DNA from: Rubrobacter indicoceani | GTDB taxonomy: Bacteria; Actinomycetota; Rubrobacteria; Rubrobacterales; Rubrobacteraceae | Length of the DNA stretch: 64,000 bases | Direction of reading: 5' to 3' | Assembly: GCF_003568865.1 (NCBI RefSeq) | Contig: NZ_CP031116.1 | Location: 1-64,000 of the forward strand | In this document: positions 10,815 through 59,599 of the stretch, in pieces | Layout: every line of letters begins with the position of its first letter | Numbering within the stretch: position 1 is the first letter of the stretch | Program-made: the position numbers and the translations under genes | Notes under the pieces: model-generated | Databases searched by the model: none | Told to the model about the DNA's origin: nothing | What the model saw: the letters and a program-made list of their open reading frames with translations, nothing else

Positions 10815-11425
10815 CCAGTAGGGCCCGCTGGCTGCTGCTCACGCTGGCTGGCGGGCGGGCGAGCGTGCCTCCGCCGCCACAGCCAGACCCCTACCGCTTG
10901 TCCGACGAAGACCGCGATGACGCTGAGGAGGAGCAGGAGCGTAAAGGGGGATTCCAGTCGCAACAGCGCACCGTAGAAGAACGCATGCAGGATGACCAGC
11001 GCGAACAGGACGTAGTTCAGACGCTGAATCCGCTTCCAGCGTCTGGCTTTGAGTTTCCGCAGAGCGAAGTCGGTGGAAAGAGCGAGCAACCCTACCACGA
11101 TCACCGTCGCGGCAAGCCCGGTCCAGTTGGCCAGGCCGAAACTATTGGTCAACAGGCTGCCATCGGGCGCGACAAAGTAGTAGAGGATGCCGCTGATCGT
11201 TAAGCTGCCATGCACCTGCAATCCGAAGATCGCGTGGACGACGCTGGCGATGGCTGTCCACGTCCCCACGTCACGGCGCAGATAGCTCGAGACGGGATTT
11301 CGCTTGCGCAGCAGGAGGTTGGCCGGACCGATGAGGAGGGTGAGCGCGAGGAACCCGAGGGCGAGGTAGCCGGTGGCGACGGTAAGCTGCTGCATGCTGA
11401 TGCCGAGGAAGGAGTCGCCTCTCAT
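10811..11425 (-). CDS. Ferric-reductase-like transmembrane protein
   Basis: 204 residues with about six TM helices. Histidines occur within helices (SVVHAIFGLQVHG near residue 65; VILHAFFYG near residue 145), the pattern of haem-binding ferric reductase-like (MsrQ/YedZ-type) membrane domains. These proteins carry electrons across the membrane through b-type haem. No FAD or NADH domain is attached. It begins at the stop of the 144-residue small protein (TAATG) and overlaps the next gene by 4 bp. The electron donor and acceptor are unknown. Confidence 0.75.
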   Translation of the reverse strand: MRGDSFLGISMQQLTVATGYLALGFLALTLLIGPANLLLRKRNPVSSYLRRDVGTWTAIASVVHAIFGLQVHGSLTISGILYYFVAPDGSLLTNSFGLANWTGLAATVIVVGLLALSTDFALRKLKARRWKRIQRLNYVLFALVILHAFFYGALLRLESPFTLLLLLSVIAVFVGQAVGVWLWRRRHARPPASQREQQPAGPTG

Positions 11426-11859
11426 TAGGAGTCGCCTCCCATTCGTTCCGCTTCGTTCCCGCCGTGGTCCCCTGCGGGTTGGTCCGCGCCCTCACGCATC
11501 GGACCCGTTTGGCCCCCGCCGTGATTCGATTGGTCCGCGCCCTCACCCATCGGTCCGTCGTGGTCCCCGCTGCGATCCAGATCCATATCCTGCATATCCA
11601 TCGTCTCGCGTCCCTGGGGGAGCGGCGCAGATGAGTGCATGTCCAGCGCGGGGTACGCGCTGGCGTCGAAGCGCGGGAGCGTGAAGAACAGGACGAGGAC
11701 CAGGGCACTCGCGAGGACGAGCGGCACATGGAAGCGAAGAAGGCGATGACGCCAGTCGCCGCTGCTGCCGCCAACCTGTTGATTCGAAGATCGGGTGGCC
11801 GATTGCATACTCCTGCTCGGCCTCACGCCGGTATCGGGGCCGGGGGGTCGGTCAGCCAT
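11425..11859 (-). CDS. His/Met/Asp-rich single-TM protein with internal repeat
   Basis: 144 residues. After a polar N-terminus there is one TM helix (about residues 45-63, VPLVLASALVLVLFFTLP). An extracytoplasmic tail rich in Met, His, Asp and Gly follows (MDMQDMDLDRSGDHDG). The tail has a 17-residue tandem repeat, GPMGEGADQ and GPMREGADQ, encoded by 27-bp repeats at 11479-11505 and 11530-11556. Such tails often bind metal ions, but that is inference. It heads the operon with the ferric-reductase-like protein, and its start region is duplicated at 9971. Confidence 0.7.
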   Translation of the reverse strand: MADRPPGPDTGVRPSRSMQSATRSSNQQVGGSSGDWRHRLLRFHVPLVLASALVLVLFFTLPRFDASAYPALDMHSSAPLPQGRETMDMQDMDLDRSGDHDGPMGEGADQSNHGGGQTGPMREGADQPAGDHGGNEAERMGGDS

Positions 11860-34908: not shown

Positions 34909-36629
34909 GATCCTCCCCCCGGTATCGCCTCGCCCGCCGCCCGCAGAACGTAGAGCATCGAGGTTGCGCCGGGGTCGCGGCTGCCCCGGCTCCTTTCTCC
35001 GAGCTTCGAGGCCCGTCCGAGGGCGCTGATCATATCCGAAGTCGAGTCCGCCCCGACCTCCGCCGCCGAAAGGGCCGCTCGCCACGCCTCCGCGCGCGAC
35101 GCGCCACCGCTTGCGGCCCCGCCGAACGCAACGACGAACGGCTCCAGCGTGTCCACCATCGTCTTGTCCCCGACCTCTGCCCCCCCGAGGTGCTTTATCG
35201 CGTCCAGCGCGTCTCTGAAGGCCCTGTGGAAACCTCCCGCGTCCGTCCCGTCTGCGTCGAGGCCCTGGCCCAGAGCCGTGATCGCCGACCCGTACAACGC
35301 CCCCGACGCGCCACCCGCAGCGTCCGAGAACGCCGCGCCCGCCCGCACCAGCACCGCCCCGGCGGAACCACCGTAGCCGTCTGCGGCGGCGACCGCCGCC
35401 CGGAAGCCGCGAACCATGCCGGAGCCGTGATCCCCGTCCCCGGCCACCGCATCGAGACGCCCGAGCTCCTGCTCCGCGCCGGAGACGGCTCTGAGCGCGC
35501 GAGCCAGACCATCCCGCGCCGCGTCCCCGCCGGGGGTCGTCTCGCCGGTTGAAGCCTCGATGTCCTCAGCCTCGTCCGGCGGGGCGATGGTCTCGAAGTC
35601 CGCGGTTCCGTTTCCGTTGGAGAGCCCGGCCCCGCCGCGGGAGAAGGCCGGGGTTTCGGCGGGGGCGTCGTGGAGTTCCTGCAACTCGTCGTCGAGCCAC
35701 ATAAGGGTCAGGGAGCATCCGGCCATATCCAGAGAGGTGACGATCTCCCCGACCTCCGGCGAGTGGACCTCGAGCCCGGCCTCACCGAGAAGCCGCCCGA
35801 CGTCGCGGAAGATCACGAAAAGCTCCTCGTACTTCGTTGTCCCGAGGCCGTTCATTATCACGGCGACCCGGCCCCCGGCTCCCTCGGGCGCGTCGTCGAG
35901 GAGCCGCTCGACGAGCAGCTCTGCGATGCCGGACGCCGGAAGCATGTCGGAGGAATCTATCCCCGGCTCGCCGTGAATCCCCATCCCGACCTCCATCTTC
36001 CCCGCCCCGACGGTGAAGAGCGGCTCGGCCTGCCCCGGCAGCGTGCAGCCCCCGAAGGCGAGGCCCATCGTCCGGGTAGCGTCGTTAGCCCGGACGGCAA
36101 GCCTCTCCACCGAGTCGAGGTCGTCGCCGCGGGTCGCCGCCGCCCCCGCGACCTTGAAGACGTAGAAGTCGCCCGCGATGCCCCGCCGCTCCTCCTCCCT
36201 GCCCTTCGGGGCGCTCGCAACGTCGTCGGTTACAACGACCGTCCGAACGTCCATGCCTTCCCTGCGGCAGCGCAGCTCGGCCATCCCGAAGTGCATCACG
36301 TCGCCGGAGTAGTTGCCGTAGGAGTACAGGACGCCCGCCCCGCCGTCGAGGGCTTTCGTTACCCGGTAGACCTGCTCGCCCGACGGGCTGGCAAAGATAT
36401 CTCCCATCACCGCACCGTCGGCCAGACCCGCCCCGACGATGCCGCAGAACGCCGGGTAGTGTCCCGAACCGCCCCCGATGACGACCGAGACCTTCCCCCG
36501 CTTCGGGGAGCCTGCGGCCATCACCCCGGAGGCGTTCGGGACGCGCTTCACGTAGCGCCCGTAAGCCGATACGAAGCCTTCGATCATCTCGTCCTTAAAA
36601 GAAGTCGGGTCGTTTGTAATACGCTGCAT
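34905..36629 (-). CDS. Fused dihydroxyacetone kinase (DhaK-DhaL)
   Basis: 574 residues. The N-terminal DhaK domain (about 1-330) has SVVIGGGSGHYPAFCGIVG and the substrate-binding His in VGMGIHGEPGI. A Ser/Gly/Thr-rich linker (about 330-375) joins a C-terminal DhaL domain with the Mg-ATP motif VAGDGDHGSGMVRGF and DAAGGASGALYG. This is the single-chain ATP-dependent form that phosphorylates dihydroxyacetone; related enzymes act on erythruloses (DerK/LerK). Given the RpiB-like and polyol-phosphate enzymes nearby, a tetrulose substrate is an open alternative. Confidence 0.93.
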   Translation of the reverse strand: MQRITNDPTSFKDEMIEGFVSAYGRYVKRVPNASGVMAAGSPKRGKVSVVIGGGSGHYPAFCGIVGAGLADGAVMGDIFASPSGEQVYRVTKALDGGAGVLYSYGNYSGDVMHFGMAELRCRREGMDVRTVVVTDDVASAPKGREEERRGIAGDFYVFKVAGAAATRGDDLDSVERLAVRANDATRTMGLAFGGCTLPGQAEPLFTVGAGKMEVGMGIHGEPGIDSSDMLPASGIAELLVERLLDDAPEGAGGRVAVIMNGLGTTKYEELFVIFRDVGRLLGEAGLEVHSPEVGEIVTSLDMAGCSLTLMWLDDELQELHDAPAETPAFSRGGAGLSNGNGTADFETIAPPDEAEDIEASTGETTPGGDAARDGLARALRAVSGAEQELGRLDAVAGDGDHGSGMVRGFRAAVAAADGYGGSAGAVLVRAGAAFSDAAGGASGALYGSAITALGQGLDADGTDAGGFHRAFRDALDAIKHLGGAEVGDKTMVDTLEPFVVAFGGAASGGASRAEAWRAALSAAEVGADSTSDMISALGRASKLGERSRGSRDPGATSMLYVLRAAGEAIPGGGS

Positions 36630-36676
36630 GCTGGCTCCCTTTTCCGTGGTAAGTGGTCGTCCGATCGTGGGCCGTG

Positions 36677-37714
36677 CTAGGGCAGGACCGCGACTTTGAT
36701 CCCCTCGCCGCCTGCGGATTCATCTATCGCCCGGACCGCCTGTGAAAGCGGGAAGCGGTGGGTGATCATCCGCTCCACCGCGATGCGCCCGGACTCTATA
36801 AGCCGGAGGGCGGTGCTGTAGTTCTCGCGCTTCGAGTCCGAGGCCCCGGTTACGACAAGCTCGTTGTAGTGGATCAGGTTCGCCTCCACCTCAGACCAGC
36901 CCGCCCCGGCGAGCCCGGCGAAGACGTTGATGCGACCTCCCTTGCGGGCGAGCCTCAGCGCGTCGTTGACGAGCGCGGGGAGGCCGATGCAGATAACCGC
37001 GACGTCTACGCCGAAACCGTCCGTATGCCCGCGAACGACCTCGGACAGGTCCTCCGTCGTCGGGTCGACAAGGACGTGCGCGCCGAGTTCCCCTGCGAAT
37101 CTCCGGCGAGCCTCGGAGGGGTTGCTGACGATCACCTTCCCAGCCCCCGACAGCAGCGCGAGCTGGAGGTGGAAGAGGCCTATCGGTCCCGCGCCGAGTA
37201 TCAGGACCGTGTCGTCCACCTCGACGCGGTAGTTCGAGAGGCCGTTTATGCAGCACGAGAGCGGCTCGGCGAGCGCAAGGTGTTCGGAGGGGACGTTTTC
37301 GTTTGCAACGAAGAGGTTGCCCGCCGAGACGGCCTCCGCCGGGACGCGCAGATACTCCGCCAGGCCGCCGTCCACGACGTTGCCGACGATCCGCTTGTTC
37401 AGACACAGGTTCTCCATCCCGCGCCTGCAGTAGTGGCAGCGCAGACAGGAGATCGCCGGGGCCAGGACAACGGGTGATCCGGCTCTGTAGCCCCGGACGT
37501 CGCGCCCGACCTCCGCGACGTGGCCCGCGAGCTCGTGGCCGAGGATCACATCCCTCCCGATTCCCCGCGTCTTCTCGCCCTTCATGATCCGCACGTCCGT
37601 GCCGCAGACCGTGTTCGCCCCGACCTTTACGATAACCTCGCCCGGCCCGGCCTCCGGGGTCGGAACCTCGGTGACCTCCAGGTTGCCCGGCTCCCTGAAA
37701 ACTGCGGCTAGCAT
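36677..37714 (-). CDS. Zinc-dependent medium-chain dehydrogenase (sorbitol/threonine DH-like)
   Basis: 345 residues; GGAGGACAAG precedes the ATG. The catalytic zinc Cys and His are in ANTVCGTDVRI and LGHELAGHV, structural zinc Cys residues in CLRCHYCRRGMENLC, the nucleotide fold in VLILGAGPIGLFHLQLALL. It likely oxidises a polyol to a ketose with NAD(P), for example supplying the dihydroxyacetone/tetrulose for the adjacent kinase. The substrate is not readable from the sequence. Confidence 0.92.
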   Translation of the reverse strand: MLAAVFREPGNLEVTEVPTPEAGPGEVIVKVGANTVCGTDVRIMKGEKTRGIGRDVILGHELAGHVAEVGRDVRGYRAGSPVVLAPAISCLRCHYCRRGMENLCLNKRIVGNVVDGGLAEYLRVPAEAVSAGNLFVANENVPSEHLALAEPLSCCINGLSNYRVEVDDTVLILGAGPIGLFHLQLALLSGAGKVIVSNPSEARRRFAGELGAHVLVDPTTEDLSEVVRGHTDGFGVDVAVICIGLPALVNDALRLARKGGRINVFAGLAGAGWSEVEANLIHYNELVVTGASDSKRENYSTALRLIESGRIAVERMITHRFPLSQAVRAIDESAGGEGIKVAVLP

Positions 37715-37967: not shown

Positions 37968-38768
37968 TCACCGCCTCCCTACGGATGCTTTACCGTGCAC
38001 GGCCTCGCGAAGCCGCCGCGACATCCCGACCGGGTCGCCCGACATCCAGACGTTCCGGCCGAAGATTATTCCCCTGGCCCCGGCCTCGATCGCCCCCGTG
38101 GCCGAGGCTATTACGTCCCTCTCGTCTCCGCTTCTGGCCCCGCCGAGCGTCAGCACCGGGACCGGGCAGGCCGCGATAACGTCGCGCATCGAACCCACGT
38201 CCCCGGTGTACTCGGTCTTTACGGCGTCGGCCCCGAGCTCCGAGGCGATGCGGCAGCCGTAGGCCAGAAGGTCCGGGTCTTTCTTTTCTTCTATGCGCGA
38301 ACCCCAGAGCGTCGCCTCGACGATAAACGGGAGGCCGAGCCTCTGGGCCTCGGCCCCGGCCCTTGCCACGGAACGAACGTTGTCCGCAAACATCCCGCCG
38401 GACTCGGGGCCCTGTATAAGGTAGACGACTATCGCCCCGGCCCCGAGCCGCTGCGCCTCTTCCGGTTCGATCAGGACGCGGTGCCTCTCCCCCACGTCCT
38501 TCATGCGCTCGTCGAGGACCGTCCAGTCGGTGCGGACTATCGGGACGGGCGCCCCCCGGTGGGCGAAGAGGTCTTCGGTCTGCTTGAGGGTGCCGGGCGA
38601 GACAAGGACGCCGTCCGGCTCCCCGGCCACGATGTTCCCGACCGTCGCCCGCACGCCGCCGGGTTCGGGCGGCATCTTGAGGGTCGTGCCGTGATCGTAA
38701 GCCGTTATAAACGCCCGTCCGCTCTCCCTGTCAAAGAGCCTTCCCAGTCGGAGATCCGCTCCGCTCAT
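37968..38768 (-). CDS. Class I aldolase (DhnA/FbaB/LsrF family)
   Basis: 266 residues; GGGGGAGAGA precedes the ATG. The (beta/alpha)8 barrel has FITAYDHGTTLKMPPEPGG, a Schiff-base lysine in ADAVKTEYTGDVGSM, VLTLGGARSGDE and ARGIIFGRNVWMSGDP, typical of the archaeal-type fructose-bisphosphate aldolase and LsrF family. It could cleave a ketose phosphate to dihydroxyacetone phosphate plus an aldehyde. No other aldolase lies in the cluster, so it is the prime candidate for C-C cleavage in the pathway. Confidence 0.88.
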   Translation of the reverse strand: MSGADLRLGRLFDRESGRAFITAYDHGTTLKMPPEPGGVRATVGNIVAGEPDGVLVSPGTLKQTEDLFAHRGAPVPIVRTDWTVLDERMKDVGERHRVLIEPEEAQRLGAGAIVVYLIQGPESGGMFADNVRSVARAGAEAQRLGLPFIVEATLWGSRIEEKKDPDLLAYGCRIASELGADAVKTEYTGDVGSMRDVIAACPVPVLTLGGARSGDERDVIASATGAIEAGARGIIFGRNVWMSGDPVGMSRRLREAVHGKASVGRR

Positions 38769-38858
38769 TCTCTCCCCCGCTCTTTTGCCGGATATGGAAA
38801 ATATCTAAGCCTTCGGCCCTTGTGCGCCGGGGCGTTCTCCCGCCTCCAGGCTCCGCCT

Positions 38859-40424
38859 CTAGGCCGGAGCCCTGTTCTCCCGGGCGACGTGCTCGACGGT
38901 CCTGTGCATCAGCTCCTTCATCTGCGGGTAGGTGTCTATGTAGCGGTCCACGTAGAACCTGTAGGCTTCGTAGGCCTCGGGGTTCGGCTCGATGGTCCCT
39001 TCATCATGGACCATCGCGCGGGCGGCTTCGGGGATGTCTCTATAGATGCCTGCACCGACGGCGGCGATCATGGCCGAGCCGAGAACGGGGCTCTCCCCGA
39101 CCTTTGTTTTCTGGATCGGCACGTTCGCGACGTCGGCGTGCATCTGCATCCAGAGGTCGCTCTTTGTCGGCCCGCCGGCAACGACGTTCAGCCTGGGCTC
39201 GAAGTCGTGGCCGCGCATCGTGCGCAGGATGTGCTCGGTGCCGTAACAGATGCCCTCGATGATCGCCCGGAACATATGACCCTCCGTGTGCGAGAGCGAA
39301 AGCCCCCACATCATGCCGCGTGCGAGCGGGTCGGTGTGGGGCGTGCGGTTGCCCTGGAAGTAGTCTATGAGCATAAGACCGTCGGAGCCGATGGGGATGT
39401 CCTTTGCAAGCTCGTTCAGGATGTCGTAGGGGTCGCAGCCGCGCTTCCGACCTTCTTCCTGAGCGATCCTCGCGTAGCGGTTCTTAAACCAGGCGACGAT
39501 CGAGCCGGTGGAGACCTGACCGCCTTCCACCGTGTACTGGCCCGGGACCTGCGCGTCGGTGTACGCCCCGAAGAAACCCCGACCGTAGATAGGCTCTGCG
39601 GCTTGACCGATCATGACATGAGAGGAGCCGGTTATAAGGGCCATCTTCCCCGGCTCCGTTACGCCGAGCCCGATGGCCCCGACAAAGGCGTCCACCCCGC
39701 CCGCCGCGACCGGCGTCCCGGCCCTGAGGCCGAGTTCCGAAGCGACCTCGGCCTTCAGCCCGCCGACGACCTCGCCCATGTCAAGAACGGCCCTCGGGAA
39801 CTTCTCTATAACGTCGCCGACGCCGACGGCCTCGTAGAGCGACTCGGGCCAGCCGCCGGCGTTCCGGTCGTAGTACCAGCGGATGGAGGCGTTGTTGATG
39901 GAGGCGACCCACTCGCCGGTGAGCCTGAAGGTGACCCAGTCCTGGCACTCGCAGATCAGGTCGGCCCGGTCGTAGACCTCGCGCTCGTTCTCCTTGAGCC
40001 AGAGCGATTTGGACGGCATCCACTCCGCAGACACCGCGCCGTAACCGTTGTACTTGAGGGCCGGGTCGCCCGTCTCGGCGAGCCTCCGGGCCTGGTCCGA
40101 GGCCCGAACGTCCATCCACAGAAGCGCCGGACGGAGATGGTTGCCGTTTCCGTCCACGGCAAGAACGGTGCAGCTCGTCGTATCCACCGATATCCCGGCC
40201 ACGTCCTCCGGGGCGACGCCGGACCTCTCCATCGCGCCCTTTGTCGCCGCTACAAGGCAGCGCCACCAGTCTTCGGGGTTCTGCTCGGCCCAGCCGCTTC
40301 TCGGGAACTCCGTGTCGAACTCCACGCCCTCAAAGACCTTCGGCGTGCCCTCGCGGTCAAAGAGGCCGACCCTCACCCCGCCGGTCCCGAAGTCTATCCC
40401 CATCAGGTACGTTCCATCTGACAT
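38859..40424 (-). CDS. FGGY-family carbohydrate kinase, paralogue 3
   Basis: 521 residues from the ATG at 40424 (GGGGAGAGCGG upstream). It begins SDGTYLMGIDFGTGGVRVGL and carries the same FGGY motifs as paralogues 1 and 2. The C-terminal half is almost identical to paralogue 1 at DNA level (compare 38900-38970 with 26286-26356), while the N-terminal half differs more (WMPSKSLWLKENEREVYDRA). One distinct substitution is GGVDAFVGAIGLGVTEPG instead of GAIDGFSGALGLGVTEPG near the sugar/ATP cleft, so substrate may differ. Confidence 0.9.
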   Translation of the reverse strand: MSDGTYLMGIDFGTGGVRVGLFDREGTPKVFEGVEFDTEFPRSGWAEQNPEDWWRCLVAATKGAMERSGVAPEDVAGISVDTTSCTVLAVDGNGNHLRPALLWMDVRASDQARRLAETGDPALKYNGYGAVSAEWMPSKSLWLKENEREVYDRADLICECQDWVTFRLTGEWVASINNASIRWYYDRNAGGWPESLYEAVGVGDVIEKFPRAVLDMGEVVGGLKAEVASELGLRAGTPVAAGGVDAFVGAIGLGVTEPGKMALITGSSHVMIGQAAEPIYGRGFFGAYTDAQVPGQYTVEGGQVSTGSIVAWFKNRYARIAQEEGRKRGCDPYDILNELAKDIPIGSDGLMLIDYFQGNRTPHTDPLARGMMWGLSLSHTEGHMFRAIIEGICYGTEHILRTMRGHDFEPRLNVVAGGPTKSDLWMQMHADVANVPIQKTKVGESPVLGSAMIAAVGAGIYRDIPEAARAMVHDEGTIEPNPEAYEAYRFYVDRYIDTYPQMKELMHRTVEHVARENRAPA

Positions 40425-58092: not shown

Positions 58093-58461
58093 CTAGCGAT
58101 CCTCCCAGCCGCTGCGCTCCAGCCACTCGACCAGAAGCATCTCGACGACGTCGCTGTAGAGCGGCTTGTTCGGCTGGTGCCTGACCCCCGTCTCGTCCAG
58201 GTCCGTGAGGGCCTGCCGCTTGACCTCCGGGTCGAGAAGGGCCTGCTTGACGCGGTCGTAGACCTCGACCCTGACAAACGCGCTGGCGAGCATGTAGTCG
58301 GGGTCGCTGCGCTTGCCGACGGTCTTTCTCTGGTTGCGCCTGCGGGGCTGGGCCGGTGTCCGCGAGGGCTCCGCCTCGACCGCCCGCTCCTCCGACGGGC
58401 GACGGCGCGTTCTGAGCGCGTTCGCCATGCCGCCCTCTCCCCTGTTCCTGTTCTCGCTCAT
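58093..58461 (-). CDS. Small DNA-binding partition partner (ribbon-helix-helix-like)
   Basis: 122 residues. The N-terminal half is basic and disordered (ALRTRRRPSEER, PRRRNQRKTVGKR). The C-terminal part has a strand-helix-helix pattern: AFVRVEVYDRVKQALLD then PLYSDVVEMLLVEWLERSG, like ribbon-helix-helix centromere-binding proteins of type Ib partition systems. Its start overlaps the ParA-type gene stop by 4 bp. It is the likely binder of the 8-bp arrays. I cannot name a family. Confidence 0.75.
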   Translation of the reverse strand: MSENRNRGEGGMANALRTRRRPSEERAVEAEPSRTPAQPRRRNQRKTVGKRSDPDYMLASAFVRVEVYDRVKQALLDPEVKRQALTDLDETGVRHQPNKPLYSDVVEMLLVEWLERSGWEDR

Positions 58462-59057
58462 CTTAGCTTGATCACCTGCCTGCCTATCTTTTTGTAGTCT
58501 TCCCAGCCCTGCTTTGCCCGCCGATCATTCACGTCGTACACCGGAACGCCCTGAAGCGCGGCGGTCTGAAACGCCTCCCGGCGGCGGATCTCACCATCCA
58601 GAAGCGGTATCCCCTCTGCCTCCAGAGCTTTTCTCGCCCCAGTCCCCGACCTGTTCCACCAGGGGACCATCGTCAGCAGAACCCGGTACTCGGCCCGGCC
58701 CCCGAGCGCCTTGAGATCATCCACGAGCAGCATCAGCGCGTTGAGCGAAAGAGCCTCCGGCGACGTGGGTATCACGAGCAGGTCGCTGTCGTCCACCGCC
58801 GCCTCCAGATCCTCCCCCCCGAGCCGCCCCTGGGAGTCGAGGATGACATGCTCTTCTCCCCCCGGCTCCGCGCTCGGCTCCACAACCTGAAAGGGCAGCC
58901 TCCCCCGCTCCGACCACTCGATGGCGCTCGCGTTCGGATCCGTATCTATAAGCACCGTCGACCCCTCACCGAACCGCTCCGTGAAATACGCCGCCAGATG
59001 GACCGCCGTAACCGTCTTTCCGACCCCGCCCTTGTGAGATGTAACCGTGACGATCAC
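58458..59057 (-). CDS. ParA-family partition ATPase (type Ib, short)
   Basis: 199 residues from a GTG. The deviant Walker A is TSHKGGVGKTVTAVHLAAYF, followed by VLIDTDPNASAIEWSERGRL and VILDSQGRLGGEDLEAAVDD with LLVIPTSPEALSL. It lacks the N-terminal HTH of type Ia ParA, as expected for type Ib, which rely on a small centromere-binding partner. It drives segregation of DNA by ATP-dependent nucleoid patterning. The partner gene follows, and a tandem 8-bp array lies 98 bp upstream. Confidence 0.93.
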   Translation of the reverse strand: MIVTVTSHKGGVGKTVTAVHLAAYFTERFGEGSTVLIDTDPNASAIEWSERGRLPFQVVEPSAEPGGEEHVILDSQGRLGGEDLEAAVDDSDLLVIPTSPEALSLNALMLLVDDLKALGGRAEYRVLLTMVPWWNRSGTGARKALEAEGIPLLDGEIRRREAFQTAALQGVPVYDVNDRRAKQGWEDYKKIGRQVIKLR

Positions 59058-59154
59058 ACCCGACCAGCCCCCTCAACCAAACCAGACCCCCAACTTATCT
59101 CCAGCCTTACAACCGCCAACCCTCGGCGTTGCCTCAAACTACCCTATCCTTTTC

Positions 59155-59234
59155 AGATAATCAAATATTCAGGTAAACGATTATTTGCTTATTCAATTAT
59201 ACGTTTTTTTGTTTATTCAGTTATTCATCGTTTC
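59155..59234. repeat. Tandem 8-bp array 1 (ten units), candidate centromere
   Basis: Ten contiguous 8-mers with no spacers: AGATAATC, AAATATTC, AGGTAAAC, GATTATTT, GCTTATTC, AATTATAC, GTTTTTTT, GTTTATTC, AGTTATTC and ATCGTTTC. Most fit GNTTATTY on one strand or its complement. The block is AT-rich within GC-rich DNA and lies upstream of the parA-type gene, where type Ib systems carry their centromere and operator. Confidence 0.8.
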
Positions 59235-59519
59235 TGAAAGCTTCGAGACCAGAGGAGTTTGCGGTTGACAGGGGAACGCAAAAGGGCCTGAAACGAAGAG
59301 AGCCGGAGAGACGCTTCAGAGCGATCTCCCTCAGGCAGGCTCCCCGGACCCCCACGATCCCGTTTCCACCTTCTCACAGAGGCTTACGGAGACCCCTCAG
59401 GGCCAGAGTCTTGCCGAACCCGGACCGGTAAACGCTCGGTGCAGCCGGTCGTGGCCCGAAACGGGAGGTCCCACTCAGGACAAAGCCGCAAGCGCCTGCG
59501 GGAGGAACAGCGTTCTTCC
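59235..59519. other. Spacer between the two 8-bp arrays
   Basis: 285 bp of ordinary GC content with no convincing gene. A TTGACA (59265-59270 region) occurs just after array 1 on the plus strand. Several G/C-rich inverted segments could form RNA structure. I see no known RNA family. Confidence 0.45.
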
Positions 59520-59599
59520 AGATAAACGATCATGTGCTTTTTCGATTATTCACATAATCGCTTATTTGATTTTGTAGATAACCGCTTACTCAAACAAGC
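59520..59599. repeat. Tandem 8-bp array 2 (ten units), candidate centromere
   Basis: Ten contiguous 8-mers: AGATAAAC, GATCATGT, GCTTTTTC, GATTATTC, ACATAATC, GCTTATTT, GATTTTGT, AGATAACC, GCTTACTC and AAACAAGC. Units in both orientations fit GNTTATTY. It mirrors array 1 in length (80 bp) and sits 285 bp away, before the racemase gene. Confidence 0.8.

What the first reader, a model, noticed from the sequence alone, without database searches (positions are those of the whole stretch)
58093..59599. Type Ib-like partition locus with two arrays of ten gapless 8-bp units
A short ParA and an RHH-like partner are followed by two 80-bp arrays (59155-59234 and 59520-59599), each exactly ten octamers of the type GNTTATTY in mixed orientation. 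The register holds without a single base slip. This is a centromere-like design similar in spirit to the 7-bp repeats of omega/ParG systems, but with 8-bp units, twin arrays and an apparently chromosomal setting. I know of no description of it.
Basis: partly seen in the sequence, partly recalled or inferred. Interest (0 to 1): 0.82.

Follow-up and report, generated by a model that had tools for sequence, protein, structure and literature searches.

The report
Plasmid partition site with twin octamer arrays
This is the machinery that shares a 170-kb Rubrobacter plasmid out at cell division: a ParA motor, a small DNA-binding partner and two arrays of 8-letter DNA repeats; it is a family variant of known plasmid partition systems, with an unexplained conserved DNA element between the arrays.

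Summary
Two gapless 8-bp-unit arrays (59155-59234, 59520-59599) are the two strongest 8-bp periodicities in the 64-kb window. The count is a little generous: 9 good units plus 1 poor, and 10. They lie upstream of the parA-partner operon, not after it. The setting is not chromosomal: the window is part of a 169,605-bp plasmid with its own replication initiator.

Relatives carry the same design. In 80 homologous ParA loci, mostly cyanobacterial, an upstream 8-bp array accompanies the RHH partner gene in 39/50 cases and is present in 4/30 without it (p=2e-8). Within a Rubrobacter locus both arrays share one octamer vocabulary; between loci it changes. This fits the partner as centromere-binding protein.

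The kind is already known. Mycobacteriophage RedRock has two parS loci of eight 8-bp repeats, and a TP228-type parFG locus also shows 8-bp periodicity. Mixed-orientation gapless repeats are known from pSM19035 (7 bp).

New here: in Rubrobacteraceae both arrays are upstream of parA, about 290 bp apart. Between them lies a conserved element (59370-59401) of CTGTRAG-like units spaced by about one helical turn. It is shared by 13 of 17 loci despite different octamers; function unknown. Verdict: genuine partition locus, new variant of a known kind.

The parts
58458..59057 (-). parA: 199-aa ParA/ParF-type ATPase (GTG start, KGGVGKT Walker A, no N-terminal HTH extension)
   Evidence: NCBIfam ParA_partition 1.3e-26 (below its cut-off), Pfam CbiA 6.9e-13; PDB 3cwq (ParA family) 6.7e-50 and ParF 4dzz 1.4e-11; 82% identical homologue in another Rubrobacteraceae genome
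58093..58461 (-). Partner: 122-aa presumed ribbon-helix-helix centromere-binding protein (ParG-like role); overlaps the parA stop by 4 bp
   Evidence: Family alignment of 36 partners matches an RHH chain 9kkd (2.4e-4); 3 members match Pfam ParG (best 8e-5); AF2 model: disordered residues 1-50, then extended segment and helices 65-76, 78-91, 102-117. P0001 alone has no Pfam match.
59155..59234 (.). Proximal octamer array: 9 good GNTTATTY-like units (59155-59226, both orientations) plus one poor unit; presumed parS and operator
   Evidence: adjacent to a -10-like hexamer
59520..59599 (.). Distal octamer array: ten GNTTATTY-like units (both orientations); presumed second parS array
   Evidence: proximal PWM matches its own distal array best of 17 (z 8.9)
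59370..59401 (-). Central element CCTGAGGGGTCTCCGTAAGCCTCTGTGAGAAG: CTGTRAG-like units about one helical turn apart, conserved between the arrays of Rubrobacteraceae par loci; function unknown
   Evidence: EM motif information 341 versus 223-234 in shuffles; leave-one-out score 16.8, 0 of 200 shuffles reach it; inter-array autocorrelation peaks at 10/21/32/43 bp; genome hit at C2:59372-59401
59141..59146 (-). -10-like hexamer TAGGGT just after the proximal array; presumed parA promoter (weak)
   Evidence: sequence inspection; not tested statistically

Best explanation
The locus is the active partition system (type Ib ParABS) of a low-copy 170-kb Rubrobacter plasmid. The partner binds as RHH dimers side by side on the contiguous octamers of both arrays. 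The array-bound complex recruits ParA-ATP sitting on the nucleoid and triggers its ATPase, so plasmid copies are pulled or ratcheted to opposite cell halves. Binding to the proximal array, which lies just before a -10-like hexamer, should also repress parA-partner. Octamer sequence and partner change together, so plasmids in one cell (C2: GATTATTC-like; C3: GGTTTAGC-like) are sorted independently. Shown here: the arrays, their statistical reality, co-occurrence with the partner, shared vocabulary of the two arrays, plasmid setting. Inferred from the studied relatives: DNA binding, ATPase triggering, repression. The helically phased central element is shown to be conserved; that it bends DNA or binds a host protein to bring the arrays together is a guess.
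For: Array reality. ParA and partner homology. 169.6-kb plasmid with own initiator. Par genes of relatives lie by replication genes. 8-bp period averaged over 17 Rubrobacteraceae loci, lags 8/16/24: z 10.1/7.9/5.6 proximal, 6.9/4.9/2.6 distal. Arrays go with the partner gene: 39/50 with, 4/30 without, Fisher 2.4e-8; control periods p = 0.58. Proximal-distal matching: mean rank 4.0 versus 9 expected, 9 of 17 rank 1, 0 of 20,000 permutations as good. Known systems with the same layout: RedRock parS (PMC7157519); TP228-type parFG 8-bp period; gapless repeats of at least four units needed for ParA ATPase activation in pSM19035 (PMC9499535).
Against: No binding, stability or expression data for this locus. 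P0001 alone has no significant family match, and Foldseek on its model found nothing useful, as can happen with a small fold and a long disordered tail. Eleven of 50 partner-bearing loci score below the array threshold. Relatives are not independent, so the Fisher p overstates the strength. Four of 17 Rubrobacteraceae loci (G038C224, G033C527, G020C2, G023C2) gave no clear octamer array with the same windows.
Confidence: 0.92

Rival explanations
1. The arrays are replication iterons bound by the plasmid initiator, and the ParA pair is just a neighbour.
For: Short tandem repeats are typical of origins; par and rep genes are often neighbours.
Against: The initiator of this plasmid is about 46 kb away (C2:105155). 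Arrays follow the partner gene across phyla with quite different Rep types (CyRepA1, RPA/TrfA-like) and are mostly absent where the partner is absent.
Confidence: 0.03
2. The proximal array is only an operator (self-repression) and the distal one the sole centromere, or the reverse, as with separate operator and parH sites in TP228.
For: The proximal array abuts a promoter-like hexamer. ParG binds both parH and an operator (PMC7308502). G004C7 seems to have only the proximal array.
Against: Both arrays have the same octamers and about the same length. In RedRock one array is also the repression site (Dedrick 2016, from memory).
Confidence: 0.2
3. The octamers are chance low-complexity A+T-rich sequence in a G+C-rich plasmid.
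For: They are A+T-rich (76% and 68%) in a 65% G+C window.
Against: Composition-matched shuffles do not give the 8/16/24 phase; relatives with different octamers, some G+C-richer, keep the phase.
Confidence: 0.01

Closest known systems
RedRock-type parABS of cluster A mycobacteriophages (RedRock, LadyBird, 20ES)
   Same: Small ParA (20ES 34.5% identical over 83%) and small ParB in an overlapping pair; [quoted passage not shown] 8-bp period seen here upstream in LadyBird and 20ES (z 11.5, 12.4).
   Different: Arrays lie on either side of parAB and are direct repeats; in the window both arrays are upstream, in mixed orientation, with a conserved element between.
TP228 parFGH (IncX1, ParF/ParG)
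   Same: Centromere upstream of the operon; RHH partner; degenerate boxes with A+T-rich spacers in both orientations (PMC7308502); 8-bp period (z 5.9).
   Different: ParF is only a distant match (1.4e-11); the strongest 8-bp array starts about 130 bp upstream of parF; no counterpart of the 290-bp spacer with central element was seen.
pSM19035 delta-omega / parS
   Same: RHH partner on gapless short repeats in mixed orientation; four or more contiguous repeats needed (PMC9499535).
   Different: 7-bp units, not 8; no sequence similarity tested.
R388 stbABC / stbDRs
   Same: Two sets of short repeats upstream of the operon (PMC3098194).
   Different: Five 9-bp direct repeats spaced by 2 bp; DNA-binding gene first; StbB not needed for stability.
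ParA-RHH loci of cyanobacterial, Thermus, Deinococcus and Acidobacteria plasmids (e.g. Synechocystis pSYSX, PDB 3cwq)
   Same: Same ParA family (43-52% identity), same overlapping partner, 8-bp arrays.
   Different: Often a second array downstream of the partner instead of far upstream; some have 3-5 arrays (L135, L138); central element not found.

Membership tests
Type Ib ParABS (ParF/ParG-like) | Small ParA (about 190-220 aa) with ParA Walker A and no N-terminal HTH domain | tested here: met
   199 aa starting at the Walker A strand; ParF and 3cwq matches
Type Ib ParABS (ParF/ParG-like) | Small RHH centromere-binding protein encoded just downstream of parA | tested here: met
   4-bp overlap; family profile matches RHH chain 9kkd 2.4e-4 and, in members, Pfam ParG. 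Fold search of the monomer model inconclusive
Type Ib ParABS (ParF/ParG-like) | Centromere of contiguous short repeats upstream of parA, near its promoter | tested here: met
Type Ib ParABS (ParF/ParG-like) | Partner binds the repeats, represses the operon and stabilises the plasmid | not testable with these tools
   Only indirect: co-occurrence of array and partner
RedRock-type parABS | 8-bp repeat units in two parS loci | tested here: met
   window; RedRock
RedRock-type parABS | parS loci on either side of parAB | tested here: not met
   Both arrays upstream; the two closest homologous loci have no downstream array above the threshold (L075 2.8, L076 2.6)
RedRock-type parABS | Direct repeats | tested here: not met
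   Units in both orientations
pSM19035 delta-omega | 7-bp heptad repeats | tested here: not met
   Lag 7 z 0.3 and 0.5 in the two arrays
Type Ia / chromosomal ParABS (HTH ParB) | Large HTH-CTPase ParB and 16-bp palindromic parS | tested here: not met
   Partner is 122 aa with no ParB match; a separate chromosomal ParA homologue is on C1

The most novel reading that the evidence does not exclude
The Rubrobacteraceae partition site is a composite centromere: two octamer arrays bound by the plasmid-specific partner flank a conserved helically phased CTGTRAG element bound by a common, probably host-encoded, protein. That protein wraps or bends the spacer and pairs the arrays. Specificity would then sit in the octamers and architecture in the shared core, so that several plasmids of one cell use one host factor.
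Probability: 0.3. Interest if true: 0.6.

Novelty: new variant of a known kind. Interest (0 to 1): 0.4.

Why it matters
It places a poorly studied plasmid group (Rubrobacteraceae, cyanobacteria, Thermus, Deinococcus) in the 8-bp type Ib family and provides dozens of naturally diverged partner-octamer pairs for reading out how RHH proteins choose their repeats. The conserved spacer element is a concrete, testable sign of a further factor in RHH-type partition complexes, which are thought to differ from spreading ParB complexes.

Tried and rejected
Central element as a chromosomal oriC signal: the sequence model R1 gave weak paired hits at 3.8-5 kb on several chromosomes. They match no Rfam family and lie in an open frame that reads like recF, so I took them as coincidence. 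First pattern search for the element had one base too many between units; superseded. Central element outside Rubrobacteraceae: no hit above shuffles. Seven-bp arrays upstream of some cyanobacterial ParA homologues (L126, L128, L133, L141) have no partner gene by the profile or ORF search and may be the heptamer repeats common in cyanobacteria (from memory); not treated as parS. Foldseek and VIA-align with the partner model gave nothing usable. First genome-contig scan with a single protein found nothing; the alignment scan worked. Wu et al. 2011 on parH is not held, so its 8-bp spacing was measured here instead.

Full report
OBSERVATION. Both 80-bp arrays are present at the given coordinates and hold an 8-bp register. 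In a scan of the whole window for self-similarity at 8, 16 and 24 bp they rank first and second (z 7.8 at 59154, z 5.6 at 59524; next 3.8). Against composition-matched shuffles the signal sits at 8, 16, 24 and 32 bp, with nothing positive at 7, 9, 10 or 11. Measured against GNTTATTY on either strand, the first array has nine good units and a poor tenth, the second ten good units. Because parA and its partner are on the minus strand, the arrays lie upstream of the operon.

SETTING. The window is bases 1-64000 of a 169,605-bp contig next to a 2.857-Mb contig and a 52-kb contig. The 2.857-Mb contig carries a separate ParA homologue and a DnaA_N-like match near its start. C2 carries its own initiator of the RPA/TrfA-like group at 105155-106549, and C3 another at 36043-37410, close to its own parA at 38671-39264. 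So both are plasmids. The nearest named relatives are plasmids of Rubrobacter radiotolerans.

PROTEINS. ParA (199 aa) matches NCBIfam ParA_partition below its cut-off, the solved ParA-family chain 3cwq (6.7e-50) and ParF 4dzz (1.4e-11). The 122-aa partner alone has no Pfam match. An alignment of 36 partners from relatives shows a disordered tail, a short segment of strand pattern and two helices, and matches an RHH protein (9kkd, 2.4e-4); three members match Pfam ParG. The AF2 model has an unstructured first 50 residues and confident helices after residue 65. RHH is thus well supported by sequence but not proven by fold comparison.

RELATIVES. ParA homologues with an overlapping partner occur in many Rubrobacteraceae genomes. 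Averaged over 17 non-redundant loci, the region next to parA and the region 400-510 bp upstream have period 8 (z 10.1/7.9/5.6 and 6.9/4.9/2.6 at lags 8/16/24), while sequence further upstream shows only the 3-bp period of coding DNA. The octamers differ: GATTATTC-like in C2, GGTTTAGC-like in C3, GATTACTC-like in R. radiotolerans plasmid 2. A weight matrix from each proximal array picks out its own distal array (mean rank 4.0 of 17, 9 expected; 9 of 17 first; 0 of 20,000 permutations as good). The two arrays of a locus therefore most likely share one binding protein.

PARTNER AND ARRAY GO TOGETHER. From 80 genome and 16 viral loci, 80 had enough flanking DNA. A strong 8-bp array upstream was found in 39 of 50 with the partner and 4 of 30 without (Fisher 2.4e-8); periods 7, 9, 10, 11 and 13 show no such link (p 0.58). 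The four exceptions are viral loci (L158, L159, L161, L162) that have an ORF in the partner position, too diverged for the profile. Relatedness among loci inflates the p value, but the direction is clear: many ParA homologues without a partner lack arrays.

KNOWN COUNTERPARTS. RedRock ParB recognises two parS loci, each eight direct copies of an 8-bp motif (PMC7157519); LadyBird and 20ES show this period here (z 11.5 and 12.4). A parFG locus encoding a ParF identical to the solved protein has an 8-bp period upstream (z 5.9), matching the description of parH as tetramer boxes with A+T-rich spacers (PMC7308502). Gapless repeats in mixed orientation, with at least four units needed for ATPase activation, are established for pSM19035 (PMC9499535). 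Two repeat sets upstream of an operon are known from R388 (PMC3098194). The design claimed as undescribed is therefore known in kind.

WHAT IS NEW. In Rubrobacteraceae both arrays are upstream, with a spacer of about 290 bp in the window. The spacer contains a conserved G+C-rich element. Motif search over 17 loci gives information 341 against 223-234 in shuffles, and leave-one-out scores are significant in 13 of 17. Its units (CTGTRAG-like) recur at 10, 21, 32 and 43 bp, that is, once per helical turn; NAG and CTST words drive the signal. It is shared by loci whose partners and octamers differ. In a genome scan its best hits are the par loci from which the model was made (partly circular), and it was not seen in non-Rubrobacteraceae loci. 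For the window locus alone the helical signal is not distinct from off-phase lags (4.5 versus 4.9); there the case rests on the motif match (leave-one-out 16.8, 0 of 200 shuffles).

MECHANISM. Shown: array anatomy, conservation, co-occurrence with the partner, common vocabulary of the two arrays, plasmid setting. Inferred from studied relatives: the partner coats the arrays as adjacent RHH dimers, the complex activates nucleoid-bound ParA and moves the plasmid, and the proximal array doubles as operator. Speculative: the central element bends DNA or binds a host protein that pairs the arrays.

VERDICT. A genuine type Ib partition locus, and a new variant of a known kind because of the array placement and the conserved spacer element. 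Interest is moderate and rests mainly on that element.

Noticed in passing
L216 (G000:C2:105155-106549), L207:21121-22527, L208:8066-9457: Rubrobacter plasmid initiators of the RPA/TrfA-like group carry a C-terminal match to the DnaA N-terminal domain (3.4e-5 and 7.7e-6 in the two R. radiotolerans proteins), a possible fused helicase-recruiting domain.
   Followed up: partly
L135, L138, L154, L062 (upstream of parA): Some cyanobacterial and other loci carry three to five separate 8-bp arrays upstream of parA rather than one or two (Kovacikia by eye).
   Followed up: no
L126, L128, L133, L141 (upstream of parA homologues): Strong 7-bp periodicity (z 5.0-10.5) upstream of cyanobacterial ParA homologues for which no partner gene was found.
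   Followed up: no
L038 / L208 downstream of parA (R. radiotolerans plasmid 3, parA 11179-11793): A 138-codon ORF overlapping the parA stop by 4 bp looks like the partner but is not listed in the PLSDB gene table, which is incomplete.
   Followed up: no
L059 2100-2460 (Deinococcus gobiensis plasmid P2): No partner gene is listed between parA and the HNH endonuclease gene although P0001 matches translated DNA there (H81, 47% over 50 aa).
   Followed up: no
G006C361, G018C235, G007C6 loci (L015, L041, L016): These distant par loci have a partner of quite different sequence (KYLALERKEARLRGDQVDSL...), octamers with CTCTGTAA-like units, and still the same central element.
   Followed up: partly
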